Below, piece after piece: positions 17,638 through 43,323 of a stretch of DNA of 64,000 nt (its first letter is position 1; the number at the start of each line of letters is the position of its first letter). Both the position numbers and the translations under genes were made by a program. This DNA is from Caenorhabditis elegans (lineage: Eukaryota > Nematoda > Chromadorea > Rhabditida > Rhabditidae): the NCBI RefSeq assembly GCF_000002985.6, contig NC_003282.8, positions 7,998,001 to 8,062,000 on the forward strand, read 5' to 3'. Below the pieces are notes generated by a model. That model had not been told where the DNA came from. It saw nothing but the letters and a program-made list of their open reading frames with translations, and did not search any database.

Positions 17638-17841
17638 TTTATAATAACTTAAGATTCCTATTTATGTACAAATTTTAATATATAAAAAGAATGAAACATA
17701 CGATAAAAAGTTACTAAAAAATAATTAAAATGAGAAAAAAAAACAATGTTAAAATTAGCGGCGAAAAGCTAGATTATTTACGATAAACAACATGCGCGCC
17801 CGTCATTTCGGAGTCTCGTAGTTTCAACAATCTTTTTTTTT

Positions 17842-18229
17842 GAGGCCCCACGAAAAGGGGAGCAGAACGAAAAGGGGATCTGAAAAAAGGGGATCTGCGA
17901 AAAGGGGAGATACGAAAAGGGGAGATACGAAAAGGGGAGCAACGAAAAGGGGATCTGACACTGTGCCAAACGCTATTTTTCTCGAAGAAAACGATACAAC
18001 GATGCTCCGATGTTACGCGTCGCGTGTTGTTAAGCGTATCTTCTAGAAGAAAATTTCAAAAATCAACGTGCGTTGCGTGAGAAAAATTGCGTTTTGTGCG
18101 TTTGGCACAGTGCCAGCTCCCCTTTTCGTTGCTCCCCTTTTCGTATCTCCCCTTTTCGTATCTCCCCTTTTCGCAGATCCCCTTTTTGCAGATCCCCTTT
18201 TCGTTCTGCTCCCCTTTTCGTGGGGCCTC
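17842..18229. repeat. Palindromic element built from AAAAGGGG tandem units (388 bp)
   Basis: Left arm 17842-17973 and right arm 18098-18229 are both 132 bp and nearly perfect inverted copies. Each starts GAGGCCCCACGAAAAGGGG at its outer end and ends at GTGCCAAACGC. Inside each arm are seven to eight units of about 15-17 bases, each with AAAAGGGG followed by variable GAT, GAGATACG, GAGCAACG or GATCTG. The 124-bp centre is mostly unique but shares further short inverted words. Translation of either arm gives a TKRG/DTKRGD pattern, which is a by-product. No transposase frame and no clear target duplication are seen. The right arm ends 50 bases before the next gene's ATG, so it may overlap that gene's promoter. 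Confidence 0.85.
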
Positions 18230-18279
18230 TTTTTTGAGGAAATTAATTTTATAAAATTATTTTGAATTTCCTTTTTAAG

Positions 18280-22280: not shown

Positions 22281-22602
22281 CAACATATTTATAAAAATAT
22301 ATATTTGACGCGAAATAAACAAAATATCTCGTAACGAAAACTACAGTAACTCTTTTCATAAGTAACTACTGTACTGGTGTCGATTTACGGAAATAATTTT
22401 TAATCGATAAAATATAAATGGAAAACAGAAAAATGACAAAACAGTACGAATAAAACAAAAAAATAAAATCTCTGCCACAAGTGTTTTCGAACGGTAATTC
22501 GTTTCGAAAATCGGGACCGTAAATCGACACCAGCGCTACAGTAGTCATTTAAAAAAGTTTCGTAGTTTTCGCTATGAGATATTTAGTTCGTCAAATATGT
22601 TG
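22281..22602. repeat. Dispersed inverted-repeat element (322 bp)
   Basis: Left end CAACATATTT..TTTGACGCG and right end, read on the other strand, CAACATATTTGACGAAC. Both arms then share AAATATCTC, CGAAAACTAC, ACTACTGTA and GGTGTCGATTTACGG. These words are very common in the C. elegans genome, so this looks like a copy of a known palindromic MITE family. The left arm has an AT insertion of about 12 bases near its end. No clear target duplication is seen. Confidence 0.7.
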
Positions 22603-23999: not shown

Positions 24000-24452
24000 A
24001 CCGTTTACAATGAATCAATTCAAAATACACAATACATTTTTTTTGAAGTTTCCAAGTATAGAAAATAAATTTGAAACGGTTATCACGTGGATATAAGAGT
24101 TAATAATTTTTATATCCAACATGAAAATAATGAAACAATATTTATTAAAAATTTCAGTTAAATCTTTCTACTCTTCAAGGTGTTGTCTCCATGTGAGAAA
24201 GCAGGAGTTTTCCATGGCGATCACAGAATCACAAACCGCACTTATGCGCCGAAACATCCGATCGGCGGATCCTGCGTTCACCGGTTTTCAATTTTTGACA
24301 ATCGGTGAAATCGGCGATTAACACAAAAAATTTGCCGCAAATTTCCGTTTTGTTCTAATGGGGCATATACTAATGAATAAGAACTCAGATGGAAAGTTGA
24401 ACAAGATTAAAACATTTATAAACGCATTTAAAAAAAGTTGTATTTAAAGTAG
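24000..24452. other. Upstream DNA of the 217-aa gene
   Basis: No gene is supported. The stretch 24190-24320 is more GC-rich than its surroundings and contains CCGATCGGCGGATCC and a partly inverted ACCGGTTTTC / ACAATCGGTG pair. It is possibly a repeat remnant. Confidence 0.3.
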
Positions 24453-24542
24453 TAAGCCACGCCTAAGCCTAAGCCACGCCTAAGCCTAAGCCAAAGCCAC
24501 GCCTAAGCCTAAGCCTAAGCCTAAGCCTAAGCCTAAGCTAAG
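24453..24542. repeat. Interstitial telomeric repeat tract (TTAGGC/GCCTAA)
   Basis: The plus strand carries about 12 GCCTAA units. These are perfect toward the right end (CCTAAGCCTAAGCCTAAGCC), with variant GCCACG and GCCAAA units in the left half. TTAGGC is the C. elegans telomere repeat. The orientation is constant, with TTAGGC on the minus strand. Confidence 0.95.
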
Positions 24543-24576
24543 AAAATAGTCAACGGAGAGTAACAAACTTTTAACC
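24542..24576. repeat. Short diverged copy of an nhr-31 exon segment
   Basis: The 35 bases GAAAATAGTCAACGGAGAG... match nhr-31 exon sequence at 26871-26904 (GAAAATAGTTAACGGCGAG...) in the same orientation, with two mismatches and one inserted base. The copy starts directly where the telomere tract ends. In nhr-31 this segment encodes part of VKSCYSPLTIFNF. Confidence 0.85.
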
Positions 24577-24606
24577 TCCATAATCATAATCATAATCTAT
24601 ATAATC

Positions 24607-24611
<5 letters not shown>

Positions 24612-24638
<27 letters not shown>

Positions 24639-24639
24639 T
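24612..24639. repeat. (AT)n microsatellite
   Basis: About 13 uninterrupted AT units follow imperfect TAATCTATA repeats, close to the telomere tract. Confidence 0.9.
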
Positions 24640-25248
24640 CTGAAATAATGCTCAATTTATAACATTTTCTAATAAAATCTCTTCATATAAAATCTGTTTA
24701 TAACAAAAAAGCACAAGAGTCAAATATAGCTGAAATCAAGAATAATACAAAAAAAAGGATGGGGAATCCCAACCGGGGGAAATACATGCATCTACTCTAT
24801 TTCGTGGGGACAGCACACTAAACAGATAAATTTCTTTTTTTTTTTGACTATTTTCATACCTGGGATTTCACAGAAGAAAAGAGAGAGAGGGACACAGAGA
24901 ATGAGAGGAAAAAGTGAGGAAGAGAGAGACATTTTTGATCTTTTGCAAAACAAGTGAATTCATTGAATTTTTTGAGGAGAATTTTGTATTCTTACGATTA
25001 GATGCATAAAATGTCCGAATCGAACATATAATTTTTTAATCAAAAAATACATTCAATATTCTGGTGATGTGTGAGGGGTGTATGTCATTTCTTGAATGTC
25101 AATGAATGAGAAGAACAATCGGTTTAAAAAGAGACAATAACTTACTATGTATGTATATTGTATGTATAGGAAAACGATCTTTTTTAATGAGATATGTACA
25201 CATATAAGTAATGAGAAATTACGGGCAAGATGGGTTGGTCTGTAGATT
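24640..25248. other. 3' flank of nhr-31
   Basis: AT-rich DNA with a GAGA-rich patch at 24885-24930 (GAAAAGAGAGAGAGG). It presumably includes the nhr-31 3' UTR on the minus strand. No canonical AATAAA was found on that strand near the stop. Confidence 0.35.
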
Positions 25249-28200
25249 TTAGCTGTCAATGATTGGTTGATCCATAAGTTGACTGAAGAACTCTTCACAA
25301 CCATTCAGCTCAGTCAAACTGATGTCATTCTGGAAGGCACTGTCATTGTCATCGAGAAGTGGGAATGGAGATGTTGACAGCTGAAAATTCACTCATTATA
25401 TAAATTTTGGAGAATTTGGATTTTTTAATGTTAATTTTAAAGAAACATTTCCCTAGCCACAAGACATTTGAAAAACGCAAAAAAGCCCACATATGGAAGG
25501 AGTTTCTTGGGCTCGACCACTTTAGTCTTAACTTGAAACGGTGTTAATAATAGAAATAGAAATTCCCAAGAAAAAAATGTTAAGAGACTTGGAGCGAGTT
25601 AGCAAAAATAGGTACCGATTTGTATAAAAGAAAAATCGATAATAGTCACAGCCTCTATCTGAGCTTTTTTGAACGTTTTTCAAACTTCTTGTATATTCTT
25701 AAGAATATGTTTGTGTAAAACGCATTGAAGCTAGTTCCCTCAATTTAGAATCTTTACTATCCAAGAAAGTTTCAACATATTTTCCCTCAAATTCCATAAA
25801 TATTTTCAAACTTCTCTCACCATTGGAGGAGAGTATCCAGCATTAAGCATGGAGCTACATGAATTTGAATGTGGAAGATATGGTCCAGATGATAACAAAT
25901 CATCATTTGTCTGTGTTGCCACATCTACCCTTCTCACGAATCTTCGATCAGACATTGGCGGTGAGATACTCTGCAAACAAACAAGAAATTAGATTTTTGC
26001 ACACTCTTATCATTGCCATTTATCAGTTGGTAGTTGGCAAATTTCAACTTTCAATTCTCCGAGAAACTCCGAAATTTTATAGTTTTAATGAGTTTATAGT
26101 TTTAATGACAATTAAAAGAAAAAGATAATGATATAAAGTTTGATCTTTCAGTCATTTTTAGTGAACTGACCTCTAAACAAATTTCAGCTGGATTCTCGAA
26201 TAGTGGTGGGCTAATGCTGCTGCTGATAAGTTGATCATCAAATGTTCTATCTCCAAACATTTCAGCTAACAAGTTATCTCCACTTGCACGTCCTCCAAGA
26301 GCTTGACAGAAATGCATGTTTTCAGACATCAATCCGGAAAGAGTCTGAAATGTTTTGAAATAGAGAATGCAACAGTAATGACGACTAACAGTAATTGTTG
26401 GCAGAAGAAGCAACAAGTTTCCAAATCGGCTGCTTGCAGAATAGATTGGATGAAGCTCCTTGACAATTTGGAAAAGCATATCTTGAACTTTATCTCTCAA
26501 CTCAGAAATCGCGTGCCTCGCATGCTCGGATAGTCCTTTTGCATTTGGATTTAAAATAATAATTGCTTTTAATGGAACAATTTCTTCTTCTTTCAGATTT
26601 AATTTTCTCAATGGAGCCACCAATTCATTTAACGTTCGATCAATCAGGAAGTTTGAGAGATGACTGAATAAATCAAATTAATTTTCTTTAATTTTAAATA
26701 GTATTTTTCATATATTTTTATTGCGTTGATAAAAATTGGAATTAAATTAAAATTCCAACTTACTTTGTCTCATTAAACTCTGGAGGCAATCTTCTTGGAA
26801 CAAATGAATGACTGCAAAGACACAAAATATCCGGATTCTTCGTATTCTGAGCAGTTCTCGCAGAGAAATTGAAAATAGTTAACGGCGAGTAACAACTTTT
26901 AACCAATGCAACTTTATCTTCAGTATCAACTGCATCCGCAATTTCAGTTAATGAATCAACCCAATCAACAGCTGCAATTGCTCTTCTATGAGCAATTACT
27001 CCAAGTTCTTCAGTTCTTGCCATTCGAAATGGTTCATAACCAATTTCCATCCGTCGACCATCTAATGCAGGTTTTGATTCAAACATTTCCCGTAATGAAA
27101 TACTTTTTGGATCTTTTGCAGTGTTTTGTGCACTCATATTATTATCTCCTTTTACTACTTTATCCTCAATACTCATCAATTGCATTAATAAAATTCGAGT
27201 CTCGACAGGAAGTTTTCGTGACCAATCATCTCCTTGTAACCGCATCTGAAAATTTCAAGTATTAATTTATACATCATTCATGTATAGTGTAAGTTATTCT
27301 GGATTTTATCAACAACACAAACTAAATTTTAACTGTTTGAATATGCATAAACATTTTTCACTCGATTATTCCAGAACAAATAGAAAACATCACAAAAAAC
27401 ACTCAAATCATTTTGAGATTTTCCATAATTTTATGTCAAGTTTTTGTGAATTGTCAAATTTTTGGAAATTTTAAATTTGCCACCAGTTTTTTTTCAGTGT
27501 ATCTACATTTTCAAAACATACCATATGATTTAAAAGCTCCTCATCAATTTGCTTCTTCTTAATTCTTGGAACTTTCTGTTTTCCTGTCTGATCCCTATCC
27601 GGCCTGACTGCTTTTGGATCCATTCCTGCTTGAATACAACGTTGAAATCTGCAGTATCGGCAACTATTTCGCTGGACTGAAAACCGAAACTTCAGGTATT
27701 TTCTTGATTATAAAGATACTCAGTCAAGTATATTCGAATTTATTCTTTAAAAAACTTACATTTATCAACAATACAATTATTTGAGAATCTGCATGCATAT
27801 CGATATTTTCCAGTCAGTGTTCTTCTAAAGAATCCTTTACATCCATAACATGCAAGTACTCCATAATGTAATTTTGCAATTCCGTCACCACAAACAGCAC
27901 AAACTGAATCTCCATTCTGTGATCCACCACTAGAAACTGTGGGTTGCTTGTCACTGGGCCTGATGATATATGACGTGGCGGGACCACTTGATGACGTGGC
28001 ACCGCTTGTCCTTAAATCTCCTCGCATCATTGGAACTCTGGAAATTTTAAAGTTAAAAGATCGGGAAAATTAGTTTCAAACACAAAAATAATAAAATTTA
28101 AAAACTAGAGTGTGTCCTTGAAATTTTGATTTCTTGATCTTCCCACAATAATTTGTGTCTTGGAAAATACAACGTTTTTTGGTGAAGACGGAATTACATT

Positions 28201-37600: not shown

Positions 37601-40204
37601 CACTGCACCCCCACAGTGTTTAGTTGAAACAAGGGAGAATACATCAAATTATGGATTATATTTACCAACTTCCAAAGTTAAGATAGTGGGAACCAAATTC
37701 TCCTCACTTTTTGAGTGTAAATAATTTTTTGAAAAATTTTACTATAATGCCATAATGCCTTGTTTAAAACTAATTTTCAAAGACTGAAGATGCCAAAAAA
37801 TCAGCTAAAACTGATTTTTCAATAATAATAGAACATTCAAGCATATTTTAATTACATTTTTTAAAACATGACAATAATGAATCATTGAAATAAAATGTTT
37901 ATTTGTGGGCGTAATCGCCTAGATCGTTAAAATGACAATTCTGTGATACTTTGATATTCTTGATATTGTTATCTATTCAAGTAATAGATTTCAAATGTTT
38001 AGAAACACCAATGTAAGACCTTTCTGTTGATTAAATACCTAAACACAGTCCTACAGAAAACACATTAACATCCGCCCACAACTCGTAAAGAATCTCAGTA
38101 ATTTAAGATCATTTTGAGTCTATTTTGTGCAAAACACAACAAAAAACATCCAAATGAAATCATTCAGTGACCATGAACAAATAGTTCAAAAAGTTTTTGC
38201 TGAATCATTCAGAATCTAAACAAATATTTAACTTTTGTATTTTTTAATTTTTGCAATGATCACTTGATAGCTACCCTTGTGATAGAGTATCAATGAAAGA
38301 TCATGCTTCTTCAGCTGAAAAGTAGACAAGTTTGTTAATAAGCTCAGTTTTATAGTTGGCAAATAGTGTATGACAGAAGCAAAGAAAACTGTCTGAATGA
38401 CGATTGTAGAAAATTTCTGAACAATACGGTTTCAACTTTTAAAGATCTTTTTATAGACTAACGTGTTAATCAAATAAAATTAAAAGACCTGTATGTAGAT
38501 TGAAATTGATTTCAAATTGGAAATCAAATCAACATAACATCAAAAAACGAATAAGGAAAATTCAAAGATTCTTGTCCAAAGATGATATTTCCTATTTTCT
38601 CAGTTCTTCTGAGACACAAATGGATAGGTTGACAATGCATCAAATACAGAGACAGTTCTCTTTTTCTCTCTCTTTTCTCGATTGGTTAAGATCAAATCGA
38701 AAGATAAATACAGATCACATGGTCTGCCATGTTTCAACTTTGCAAGATGAAACAAACTACTACTATGACTACTAAAATGAACAACGGAAATGATGATGAG
38801 AGGGTAATGCAAATATTCTTCTTTGCAGGTGATGATAACAAAACTTGAAGTGTGAAAACCTATTAAGTTGAGTGTAGGTGTTTTATTAGACTATGGTTTT
38901 GAATTGGAAAACGTCTGGAAAATTTCAGAACGTTAAGATTTAAAATTAAAAAATTAGGGAAACTAATTTAAAATTAATATATATTTTTGAAATTACTGTT
39001 GCATATTGAGTTTCTGGAGAAGAGCAGTGTGGCACATTTTTTTAGTAATTGTACAAAACTGTCTATTTTAATATGATAATCCAGATTTTATGATTTTGAA
39101 ATAGTGGAAAAAAATTCACACCATCTGAAAATAATATTTTCTTTTGTTGAAAACTTTGAAAAAGACCTCAAACAGTGTCCACAGTTGCCATTTACTGAAA
39201 AACTTTAAACGGTCTGGCATTATTTAAGGTGTTTCAAGCTTTTCGACAAATATTAATATTATTTCCAGATGGAACGAATTTTTTTTTGCGTTCGTTTACA
39301 ATAATAACTCATTTATCAAACTCTAATTAGTTTTTGAATCTATAATAGTATATGCTCATTTAAAATCTGTCAATTGCTAAAACTTTTGAAAAATAAATAT
39401 GAAGAAGCTTTCTGAAAAAAATCTTAGATTGTTCAAAAATAAGAATGCAGCAGCAAAAGTTCAAATTGTGTTGATTTTCCCACAGAAAATGAGGATCAGG
39501 GCGACAAAAAGTGAGTGACAAAAGGTCAAAATGGTGGAATAATTGAGATGACAGACACCGATTATCCATCCGTTGGGATTGGATTCGTATTATGTTTCAG
39601 TTTTTGTGTCATAGTATGTGTACGACAACAAGGTTTCTAGTTTCTATTTTCCTTTCCTTTCACCCCCGATCAACTCAAAATTTTCACATTTCCCCTCAAA
39701 CAAAATGGGTGATGATCTGAAAAGTAACGGAATGTTGAACATATTGAGAAGGGATATCCGGTCGACATTATTTTGATATACTCAAAAACATTGTAGACAT
39801 ACAAACACGAAATATATGGGATTAAATGGACCCAGTTTTTAAATTGTTAGGCATCGGAAACTGAACAAAAATAATTGGGCAATGCTAATCTGCAAATAAA
39901 TAAACTGGAATTGCTGAAAAATGTTGAAAAATGGAACATAAAAAAGAGAAAACAGAAAAGCTAATGAATTTCCATTAAGCCTTTGCTCAAACAGAACAAA
40001 TTCAAATGGAGTTTCAACTTTCAGAGTAGGCATAGTAGAAATGAAATAGGCACGAAGCAGGCCTAAAGCAATTATACGCAGGCAATAAGAAACGACACAG
40101 GAACAAAAACTACAAACTACACAGGCTCGAAAACTATCCCTAATTTTAAATATATTGAAAAAAAGAAAAGCCGAGGAAAATATACAATAAAACAATGCGA
40201 AAAT
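31681..40204. other. Intergenic DNA upstream of nhr-31, no gene supported
   Basis: AT-rich sequence with scattered open frames up to 113 codons (34283-34624) or 98 codons (37109-37405), none with splice logic or family resemblance. Patches less AT-rich than average lie at 32270-32420, 33240-33400 and 37200-37400. This is the left part of a 15.6-kb divergent region between two nuclear receptor genes. Confidence 0.4.
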
Positions 40205-40206
40205 TA

Positions 40207-41108
40207 TTAGGTCTCCAAATAAGTTCCGGGTCAAAAATCATAACTTTTTTCGCCTTTTATCGATTTGTTTGAAATTGTTGGAATTTGTGTTATCAACCAT
40301 GATCTTTCATTTAAAAATGCTCATAAAATTTTTTGACGTCCCCAAGTGTCCTAACTCGGAGCCAATTTTTCAGCCATTTTTCCGATCTCGCTTTTTTGCA
40401 GCTTTGAAGTGAGGTTTGTGTGCGGATTTTTGTTTGTTCAGAATACATTGTAAGAAAACAACAAAAGTTTGGAAGAATTCCGTCCAAAAAAAAAATTTTT
40501 TTTTGATAGATCGTCAAAAAAAAAACCTCAAAAATTTTTTTTTCGAAAATTCTTGATTTTTGTACAAAAAGGATGTAACCAAGTGTAAAGTATTTTTACA
40601 CATACAAAACTTTTCAAATTAGTTCGATACACTGAAATGATAATAGAAAATATAATTTTTTCGGAGAATTTTTGAGTTTTTGAGTATTTCTCGAGATTCA
40701 AATTGCAAACTCAAATGTCTCTTATGTGTAAAAATAGTTTACACATGAGTTTACATATGAAAATCAAGAATTTTCGAAAAAAAAATTTTTGAACTTTTTT
40801 TGACGATCTACCAAAAAAAAATTTTTTGGACGGATTTTTTTCCAAACTTTCGTTGTTTTCTTACAATGTATTTTGAACAAAGCAAAATCCGCACACAAAC
40901 CTTAATTCAAAGCTGCAAAGCAGCGAGATCAGAAAAATGTCTGAAAAAATTGGCTCCGGGTTAGGGCAGTTCGGGTGGTCAAAAAATTTTGTGAGCATTT
41001 TAAAATGAAAGATCATGGTTGATAACATAAATTCCCACAATTTCAAAAAAATCGATAAAAGGCGAAAAAAGTTATGATTTTTGACCCGGAACTTATTTGT
41101 AGACCTAA
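40207..41108. mobile_element. Mariner-like fold-back element (902 bp), non-autonomous
   Basis: The two ends are inverted: TTAGGTCTCCAAATAAGTTC on the left and TTAGGTCTACAAATAAGTTC read from the right, both followed by CGGGTCAAAAATCATAAC. TA occurs immediately outside both ends (40205-40206 and 41109-41110), the target duplication of Tc1/mariner elements. Arms of about 400 bp are inverted copies, with scattered mismatches (for example AACTCGGAGCC against AACCCGGAGCC), around a unique centre of about 100 bp. No transposase frame remains. TTAGG ends also fit mariner elements. Confidence 0.85.
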
Positions 41109-41110
41109 TA

Positions 41111-43323
41111 CAAGATTACAAATTTTAATTTTGAAAATTTCCAGATTTACTATTAGATGGAAAAAGCGTTAGAAAATTTGACAATTTATTCATAAGTCCA
41201 TAAAGCCTGTAAAGGAAAAGTCAGGTAATCTACCAGAAAAAGTGTCTTTCCACTTCAGAATCTATTTTTAAAGAAAACATTTTGTTACCTTTGCGAGAAT
41301 TCAATTTTGAAAAGTAAAAAACAATATGTTTTGATATACCACGCCAGACTATGAATAATAATAGGAATATGTTTCAAGCATTTTTTGAAAGATAAACAAA
41401 TAAAACCATTTTTCTTCCAACACAACAATACAATTCACAAACACTTTCTAGAAATCTTTTGAAAAGTCTATTCAAAAAAAATTGGGGAAGAAATAATATT
41501 TTTATTTACAAAAAATATAGTTCATCTCCTTTTATAACTCGAAAAATTGGTACTTTGATTCATCCGATTTCATGTTTCTTTGGAGGGGTTTAAATTTATA
41601 CATGACTACTGAACCGTTCAATTGAAATCCTGTGGTAGATCAAAAAAGGAGTAACTTGATAAAATCACGTCACCGTCATTTTGCAAAAAACATTTTTGAA
41701 GCTGTGCTTGTTGCAATTTTTTAGTTTCATCGCAAAACTTTGAGAAACAATGCACTGGTAGATCAAAAAATGTGAGAAACAAACTTCACGCCATTGGAAA
41801 AAAAGAGGTGAGGGAGGTATAAACTCGTTGTATATGTGCATTGGAAACTGCAAAAATAGAAAGAAAAAGGAAGAAAAAAAAGAGTGGGTCTGGGTGAATG
41901 CACCTCAGGTGGCTGCTGCTGGCTCCGAGAGCATTATTTTTTGAGCTTGGGGAAAAGAGAAAAAGAGTAAGACGTCTCCGAAATTTGTATATTCCAAAAA
42001 AATATAGTGAAAAAATAATTTTAAAAAATGAGCGGAAGAACACGTTGGAAAGCAACAATTAATTCTCGAGAGCACCAGAAAATGATTTGAAATTACTATA
42101 AAAAGTAACTTTAAATTGAAGGATGTGGTCTGATTTGTAACGATTTATCCTTTCTGAGCAAATACAAAATGGTATTAGCTGAAAATTGGTTAAATCAAGA
42201 AATTCTTAGTCGAAAACTGTAACGCAAAATTAAATATATTCTTCTTTGAATCAAAAATTAATTACATTTTTCCTGAAACCCCTTACCAAGAAGTAACAAT
42301 GCCGAAGCACATTTTGAGAGGAAAATTTGAAAGAAAAACTGAAAGAATTGAACGCAAGGTTTTTGTTTATTTATATATTTATCAATAAAAAAAGGAACAA
42401 ATTAATTTTTTAGGTGCCAAACTACAATATGAAGGCAGTAATTTTTTCACAAAAAAACTTTTTGTGTACTTCAGAACACAAACAGAGTCGGTTAATTTAC
42501 AATTATTATTACATTGAACATGCTCATCAGCAGATAAAACAGATTAATAATATTGTGTAATCTTAATCTCGTGTGAAAAATAAACAAAATTCGGCCATAA
42601 AAAGGACACCATTGAATGGCTCCGGAAGATAAACGGAGCCCCCACGACGGCTTCTCAGATTTCTAAAATTCTGCGCCTCTAAGTCTTTCACACTATTTTT
42701 TTTGTTTAGCTAGCCAGAAGCGTGAAGATGTAAATGCAGAAATACGCAATGCGTGTTGGCAAAAAATAAAATAAAAAGAGAAAAAAGGAAAGGAAAGGCC
42801 TTCAATGTTTTAGGAAATCCGAGAGATTGAGAGATAGAGAGACGAAAAGATGCATTCATTCCACGTCTGGGTCCCTAGTAAAAGATGTGCTCTTTTCTCT
42901 CAATTATATGCTTGCTTCTGCCTTTTTTCCCTTTTCAAATGGTCCCAGACGACGTTGAATGAAAGAAAAAATATGAGAGAAACAGAGAAGAAACGTCTAT
43001 TTTTTGCATCTTTTGAGCATTTAGAGCAACTTTTCCTTTTCCTGAGAATATATTCAAAGAAGTAAGAAAAGAAAGGGTTAATGTCCTTCATCTCTCATTC
43101 TGTGGCTAAGCCTTCATGATGAATCAGTAGGCACACTTCAGGTTTTCGACGGGAATTCTTATCGCTTTTTTGAATCTTTCTTTTTTATTCTCTTTTTGTG
43201 TTTCCATTTTTGAAACTGATATCTGTGTATTTTTAGCGCAGCGTACGGAAACAATATTGAGATAGAAAAAAGGTTTAAAGGTGCCCTAGTGGGAATTGGT
43301 CAAAATAATTGTTTTTACTTCAT
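41111..43323. other. Intergenic DNA between two repeat elements
   Basis: No gene is supported. A short frame at about 42301-42360 (MPKHILRGKFERKTERIERK) ends at a GTTTTT and is followed by TTTTTTAG at about 42412, but the continuation is low-complexity and ends soon. The stretch 42600-42730 is less AT-rich than its surroundings and may be a repeat fragment. Confidence 0.35.

What the first reader, a model, noticed from the sequence alone, without database searches (positions are those of the whole stretch)
24453..24576. Interstitial telomere tract fused to a short copy of an nhr-31 exon
A 90-bp TTAGGC-type tract ends exactly where a 35-base near-copy of nhr-31 exon sequence (26871-26904, about 2.3 kb away) begins. 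The match has two mismatches and one extra base, far beyond chance. Telomere-tract insertion plus a templated scrap of nearby DNA looks like the scar of a double-strand break repaired with telomere addition or polymerase-theta-type templated insertion. The break-repair reading is inference; both sequence facts are direct.
Basis: partly seen in the sequence, partly recalled or inferred. Interest (0 to 1): 0.72.

Follow-up and report, generated by a model that had tools for sequence, protein, structure and literature searches.

The report
Telomere repeats beside copied gene scrap
In the middle of a roundworm chromosome, a short run of telomere repeats sits directly against a 35-letter copy of a piece of the neighbouring gene, most likely an old scar left when a broken chromosome was patched; it is a neat example of a known kind of scar rather than a new system.

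Summary
A 90-bp TTAGGC-type tract (24453-24542) abuts a 35-base near-copy (24542-24576) of 34 bases of a nuclear-receptor exon (26871-26904): two substitutions, one extra A, same orientation, 2.3 kb away. The match is far beyond chance (300 plain shuffles reach 33, observed 53). Genome-wide, a 24-base pattern finds only these two sites plus two 3-mismatch sites whose similarity stops there. Both flanks match only themselves, so no dispersed repeat was found. The copy is the window's one clear isolated short duplication, and it lies on the edge of its one telomere tract, so the parts are probably linked. Best reading: a compound insertion made while repairing a double-strand break, by templated copying (polymerase-theta-type) plus telomere repeats. 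Whether telomerase or copying made the repeats, and whether one or two events occurred, is open: no allele without the insert and no related nematode was available. New points: both substitutions are synonymous in the exon, so the exon may have changed rather than the copy; and none of 97 flanks of 49 other tracts, all from contig C1, shows a comparable filler. Telomere insertions with added sequence at breaks are known in mammals. New member of a known kind.

The parts
24453..24542 (-). Interstitial telomere-type tract, 15.7 hexamer units, G-rich strand on the minus strand; six pure TTAGGC units near the copy, GTGGC-bearing units at the far (left) end
   Evidence: TRF; unit parse; only tract with 10 or more hexamer hits in the window; exact TAAGCCACGCCTAAGCC occurs at 2 places in the genome, both in this tract
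24542..24576 (+). 35-base near-copy of exon sequence, same orientation as the donor, two substitutions and one extra A
26871..26904 (+). Donor segment inside a minus-strand exon of a nuclear hormone receptor gene (its codons read LVKSCYSPLTIF)
26766..27245 (-). Donor exon (ends judged by eye from splice signals), open over 160 codons; ligand-binding-domain region of the receptor
   Evidence: PF00104, E 8.5e-4, below its cut-off; weak; zf-C4 and LBD in neighbouring pieces
24050..24452 (.). Left flank; no other copy found at the sensitivity of the search
   Evidence: 1 match, itself
24577..25000 (.). Right flank; no other copy found apart from a 28-base self-complementary TA run
   Evidence: itself and 24612-24639 on the other strand

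Best explanation
It is an old repair scar. A double-strand break between two genes in the middle of this chromosome was closed with a compound insertion: about 35 nt copied from the exon 2.3 kb away, joined to a run of telomere repeats, the whole ligated between the two break ends. The copying step is most likely polymerase-theta-type end joining, in which a 3' end anneals by one or a few bases to a template, is extended, falls off and anneals again. Two orders fit. (A) The right-hand 3' end (minus strand) copied the exon, then telomerase or a telomere template added TTAGGC to the end of that copy, then the end was joined to the left. (B) The left-hand 3' end (plus strand) copied telomeric DNA as GCCTAA, switched onto the single-stranded right arm at the exon, and was joined back at the right end. 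B explains the direct orientation without needing an intact duplex donor but asks for more than 2 kb of resection; A fits the reported rule that worm telomeres begin TTA or CTT. Later slippage spread the variant units inside the tract. The scar has no function that I can see. Shown: both parts, abutment, uniqueness of the donor match at the sensitivity used. Inferred: break, order, enzymes, single event.
For: Tract and copy abut with one shared base. The donor match is the only good one found genome-wide. Of 11,753 35-mers taken every 5 bases over 2601-61395, 177 score 45 or more against DNA within 2.6 kb; they cluster in two inverted or tandem repeats (17831-18240, 40196-41120), the tract with this copy, the donor, and one tile at 22356 that just reaches 45. 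So the one clear isolated short duplication lies on the sole tract's edge; for unrelated positions that is of order 1 in 10,000 (my estimate). No other copy of the flanks was found, so a transposon end is unlikely. The direction exon to intergenic is clear: the exon is open in a receptor gene, while the copy carries a frame-breaking extra base. At the copy-tract junction the G-strand reads ..TTTTC|TTAG.., i.e. it begins TTA or CTT, as reported for worm telomeres and the de novo telomere me8 (PMC9071541, passages). POLQ repairs germline breaks in C. elegans with single-nucleotide homology and templated inserts (PMC4490562, passages).
Against: The donor is 2.3 kb away, unlike usual theta inserts. 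A 1-nt junction homology is expected by chance about a quarter of the time. No empty allele was seen, so deletion, target duplication and single event are untested. No comparable filler was found at 97 flanks of 49 other tracts, so if this is a general route it is rare or its traces decay. In the regions (20 repeat-rich C1 left-arm stretches and one of the window) a score of 53 is common: 113 of 784 random 40-mers reach it.
Confidence: 0.58

Rival explanations
1. Two events: the telomere tract was inserted first, and a later break at its edge (such repeats may be fragile) was repaired with a templated scrap from the exon; or the scrap came first and the tract later.
For: The tract has private, internally duplicated variants, so it has had time to change; nothing seen here fixes the order.
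Against: Needs two independent rare events at the same base; the units nearest the copy are nearly pure while the variant units lie at the far end, which gives no sign of a later break inside a worn edge.
Confidence: 0.27
2. Telomerase-led healing (a version of the best explanation, so its odds overlap): an end that had already copied the exon was extended by telomerase itself and then fused to the other end, as proposed for mammalian ITS insertion.
For: G-strand starts TTA/CTT at the copy junction (rule from PMC9071541); mammalian ITSs show in-register nucleotides at break ends and added sequences (PMC2246262, PMC7215372; passages).
Against: Only one base is in register; direct copying from a telomere or another tract predicts the same sequence. 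The order (filler, then repeats on the G-strand) is not the one that I infer from the passages on rodent TERC-ITS loci.
Confidence: 0.3
3. Chance similarity or a dispersed repeat rather than a copy of the exon.
For: Local duplications of this score do occur: 18 of 1,543 35-mers tiled over 5001-59000 reach 53 within 5 kb. Two further genome sites share about 24 bases with the copy at scores 35-37.
Against: Shuffles never exceed 33; in the window, hits of 45 or more cluster in two repeats, here, the donor and one borderline tile; neither of the two further genome sites extends.
Confidence: 0.02
4. The tract arose by ordinary slippage from a few telomere-like units, unrelated to a break.
For: The tract shows 17- and 23-base higher-order units, so slippage has acted on it.
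Against: Would leave the abutting exon copy as a coincidence.
Confidence: 0.08

Closest known systems
Interstitial telomeric sequences inserted at double-strand breaks in primates, rodents and horse (PMC2246262, PMC7215372; passages seen)
   Same: Short telomere tract in unique DNA, with added sequence at the junction: 'random sequence' at 12 of 66 horse loci, duplication at 3 of 66 in the paper's table
   Different: Here the added sequence has an identified donor, an exon 2.3 kb away; the mammalian sites were compared with empty alleles, this one could not be
TERC-ITS loci of rodents (PMC2246262; passages)
   Same: Telomere repeats joined to a copied fragment from elsewhere
   Different: The fragment is from a receptor exon, not telomerase RNA, and on the G-strand it precedes the repeats
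Polymerase-theta templated insertions in C. elegans (PMC4490562, PMC9834056; passages)
   Same: Short insert copied from DNA on the same chromosome, minimal junction homology
   Different: Donor 2.3 kb away instead of close to the break; combined with telomere repeats
C. elegans interstitial telomere tracts; 1,229 are cited in PMC9071541 (passage)
   Same: Degenerate TTAGGC tract
   Different: Lies in a chromosome middle, where tracts are few (on C1, 3 of 85 listed edge matches lie between 3.3 and 11.1 Mb), and carries a traceable filler

Membership tests
Interstitial telomeric sequence (C. elegans) | Internal tract of several TTAGGC units away from chromosome ends | tested here: met
   24453-24542, C4 about 8.02 Mb of 17.49 Mb
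ITS inserted at a double-strand break | Orthologous empty allele with a clean junction | not testable with these tools
   The genome search says that the window's genome has no relatives there; a protein scan of genome contigs (bacteria and archaea) for stray nematode DNA gave no relative
Polymerase-theta templated insertion | Insert matches an identifiable donor | tested here: met
Polymerase-theta templated insertion | Donor within about 25 bp of the break | tested here: not met
   Donor begins 2,295 bp beyond the copy's end; criterion of one study, PMC9834056 (passages)
Polymerase-theta templated insertion | Single-nucleotide homology at junctions | tested here: inconclusive
   One shared G between tract and copy; the outer junctions cannot be read without the empty allele
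Polymerase-theta templated insertion | Dependence on polq-1 | not testable with these tools
   Bench experiment
Telomerase-made insertion (chromosome healing) | Repeats start in the register reported for worm telomeres (TTA or CTT) | tested here: met
   ..TTTTC|TTAGC; rule from PMC9071541 (passages). Weak: one base in register
TERC-ITS | Flank copied from telomerase RNA | tested here: inconclusive
   The flank matches a receptor exon; the worm telomerase RNA was not compared
TALT (template for alternative telomere lengthening, PMC4595603) | Unique block between two telomere tracts (candidates were sought 100-2,000 bp apart) | tested here: not met
   One tract in the 64-kb window; definition from passages

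The most novel reading that the evidence does not exclude
One germline repair event in which a polymerase-theta-extended 3' end was handed to telomerase, then fused to the other break end: a theta-telomerase hybrid insertion. If so, some C. elegans interstitial tracts would record aborted healing of breaks, and the flanks of young cases should hold recoverable donors.
Probability: 0.25. Interest if true: 0.55.

Novelty: new member of a known kind. Interest (0 to 1): 0.33.

Why it matters
Many worm telomere tracts sit in repeat-rich arms where their origin is hard to read. A tract in apparently single-copy DNA with a traceable filler gives a direct record of how such tracts can be inserted, and a definite test case (present or absent, whole or in parts) for relatives of C. 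elegans.

Tried and rejected
Dispersed-repeat origin of the 35-mer: rejected at the sensitivity used. My first check of the two three-mismatch sites compared one strand only; one search repeats it on both. TALT: rejected, only one tract. Tract copied from another worm tract with the same variant: no evidence; exact TAAGCCACGCCTAAGCC occurs at two places, both here. Programmed DNA elimination relic: considered after the preprint PMC13370393 (passages), which says that elimination was lost in the line to C. elegans; its break motifs were not given in letters in what I saw, so untested.

A general link between tracts and nearby fillers: 33 regions, 50 tracts, 99 flanks examined, of which 1 region, 1 tract and 2 flanks are the window's own. 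Of the other 97 flanks, 11 score 40 or more; by inspection all 11 are repeats: 4 carry the end of one dispersed family (L043 twice, L057, L064), 3 are simple arrays (L051, L062 twice), 4 are flanks shared by two duplicated tracts (L050 twice, L051 twice). So 0 of 97 resemble this case at that threshold; 4 more of the 97 score 36-39 and were not followed. Limits: the 32 other regions are all from C1, taken from the first 100 places, not a random sample; only 40-nt flanks and donors within 2.6 kb were tried; a filler under about 20 nt would be missed. One search was an earlier form of the test (21 regions, 64 flanks) whose null was swamped by arm repeats.

The tiling (1,712 35-mers at steps of 35, 23 hits of 45 or more) could split a short duplication between tiles, so I repeated it at steps of 5; this added the donor and one borderline tile at 22356.

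A genome search for TTAGGG(N8)TTAGGC was badly conceived and told nothing. A genome-contig scan for stray nematode DNA found 65 pattern hits and no relative. A paper search for 'interstitial telomer' + 'double-strand break' + 'filler' found 0 papers. Papers were seen as search listings, abstract beginnings or passages only; none was read whole.

Full report
What is there. At 24453-24542 lies a hexamer array of 15.7 units. Read on its G-rich strand, the minus strand, it starts next to the copy with C-TTAGC and six pure TTAGGC units, and ends at the far side with units that include three GTGGC variants, part of a 17-base higher-order repeat. The exact string TAAGCCACGCCTAAGCC occurs twice in the genome, both times here, so the variants look as if they arose and spread locally.

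The copy. Bases 24542-24576 align over their whole length with 26871-26904: 32 identities, two substitutions and one extra A. The local-alignment score is 53; 300 plain shuffles of the 35-mer scored against the window on both strands reach 33 at most. A pattern of 24 bases with up to three mismatches finds four sites in the genome: copy, donor, and two three-mismatch sites, with 0 in the reversed control. Compared on both strands, those two share about 24 bases with the copy (scores 35-37 with flanks) and nothing beyond; one search had compared one strand only. The left 403 bases match only themselves, and the right 424 bases match themselves and a self-complementary TA run. A 61-base search returned only the copy, which shows that this search mode misses weak short matches such as the donor; 'single copy' for the flanks holds at that sensitivity.

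The donor. The donor exon (26766-27245, minus strand, ends judged by eye) is open over 160 codons. Neighbouring pieces hold a zf-C4 DNA-binding domain and a ligand-binding domain, the best solved match of the former being HNF4-alpha; the donor exon itself matches the ligand-binding model weakly, below its cut-off. The donor bases lie in the codons for LVKSCYSPLTIF. So the exon is the source and the intergenic piece, with its frame-breaking extra base, is the copy.

Both substitutions fall at synonymous codon positions of the exon: TCG against TCT and TTA against TTG. Of 102 possible single changes in the donor, 22 are synonymous, so two out of two would happen by chance about 5 times in 100. 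This leaves open that the exon, under selection, changed after the event and that the copy keeps the older letters. It also means that the divergence cannot simply be charged to the copy, and that the event may be older than the variation among present isolates (inference).

Are the two parts linked? Of 11,753 35-mers taken every 5 bases over 2601-61395, 177 score 45 or more against DNA within 2.6 kb; they cluster in two repeat loci (17831-18240 and 40196-41120), the tract with this copy, the donor, and one tile at 22356 that just reaches 45 (a coarser tiling gave 23 of 1,712). At 53 or more within 5 kb, 18 of 1,543 reach it (tiles over 5001-59000). So the window has one clear isolated short duplication, and it lies on the edge of its one tract. 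For independent events that is of order 1 in 10,000 (my estimate), which favours linked origin but not strictly one event, since a break at the edge of an existing tract would also put a filler there.

Is it a habit of worm tracts? I examined 50 tracts in 33 regions, 99 flanks. Leaving out the window's own tract, 0 of 97 flanks show a non-repeat local filler at score 40 or more; 11 of the 97 reach 40 and all 11 are repeats on inspection. The sample is 32 regions of C1 chosen by position in a listing, many in repeat-rich arms; in the 20 left-arm regions and one stretch of the window used, 113 of 784 random 40-mers reach the score of our copy. So the case is unusual in this sample, and the sample cannot exclude more such cases in single-copy DNA. 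Tracts are few in the middle of C1: 3 of 85 listed edge matches lie between 3.3 and 11.1 Mb. The present tract lies near 8.02 of 17.49 Mb on C4.

How it most likely arose. POLQ-mediated end joining dominates error-prone repair of the germline breaks studied in C. elegans and leaves templated inserts (PMC4490562, passages), copied from close to the break; one study counts only templates within 25 bp (PMC9834056, passages). Here the donor is 2.3 kb away and in direct orientation. Direct orientation follows if the left 3' end uses the single-stranded right arm as template, or if the right 3' end copies an intact duplex such as the sister. In the first order the telomere part would be copied C-strand, from telomeric DNA; in the second, telomerase could have added it to the end of the exon copy, and the junction ..TTTTC|TTAG.. 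fits the reported start of worm telomeres with TTA or CTT (PMC9071541, passages). One base of register is weak support. I give about 0.58 to a single compound repair insertion and 0.27 to two events; the telomerase version (0.30) overlaps with the first.

Comparison with what is known. In primates, rodents and horse, telomere tracts were inserted at breaks with deletions, duplications and added sequence, shown with empty alleles (PMC2246262 and PMC7215372, passages). Some rodent tracts carry a fragment of telomerase RNA; the fragment here comes from a neighbouring exon and precedes the repeats on the G-strand. Worm tracts number 1,229 (cited in PMC9071541). My paper searches for worm tracts (14 papers listed), for templated insertions with telomere terms (25 of 31 listed) and for tracts at breaks showed no description of this site in the listings and passages that I saw. 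I file it as a new member of a known kind.

Noticed in passing
L043, L057, L061, L064; genome places listed: A dispersed element family with inverted ends CCTCTTAAAAAGTTACAAGAAGG, many paired about 1.0-1.5 kb apart. In L043, L057 and L064 one end follows the same TCGCCCCGATTTTAATAAAATATATGAAAC, while other ends there and in L061 follow a telomere-type array. Genome-wide: 68 ends at up to 1 mismatch; GCCTAA directly before the end at 16 places exactly, 22 at up to 1 mismatch. Part of the worm's interstitial tracts may thus be carried by a mobile element; one search found no such end in the window.
   Followed up: partly
window 17850-18221: Two arrays of a 15-base unit (ACGAAAAGGGGAGAT and its reverse complement) facing each other, a large inverted repeat.
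   Followed up: no
window 40196-41120: Inverted repeat of some 300 bases or more per arm, perhaps a short DNA transposon.
   Followed up: no
L062 (C1:11540020-11545020): Several telomere-like and AAAGCC arrays crowded within about 3.4 kb, in the same orientation.
   Followed up: no
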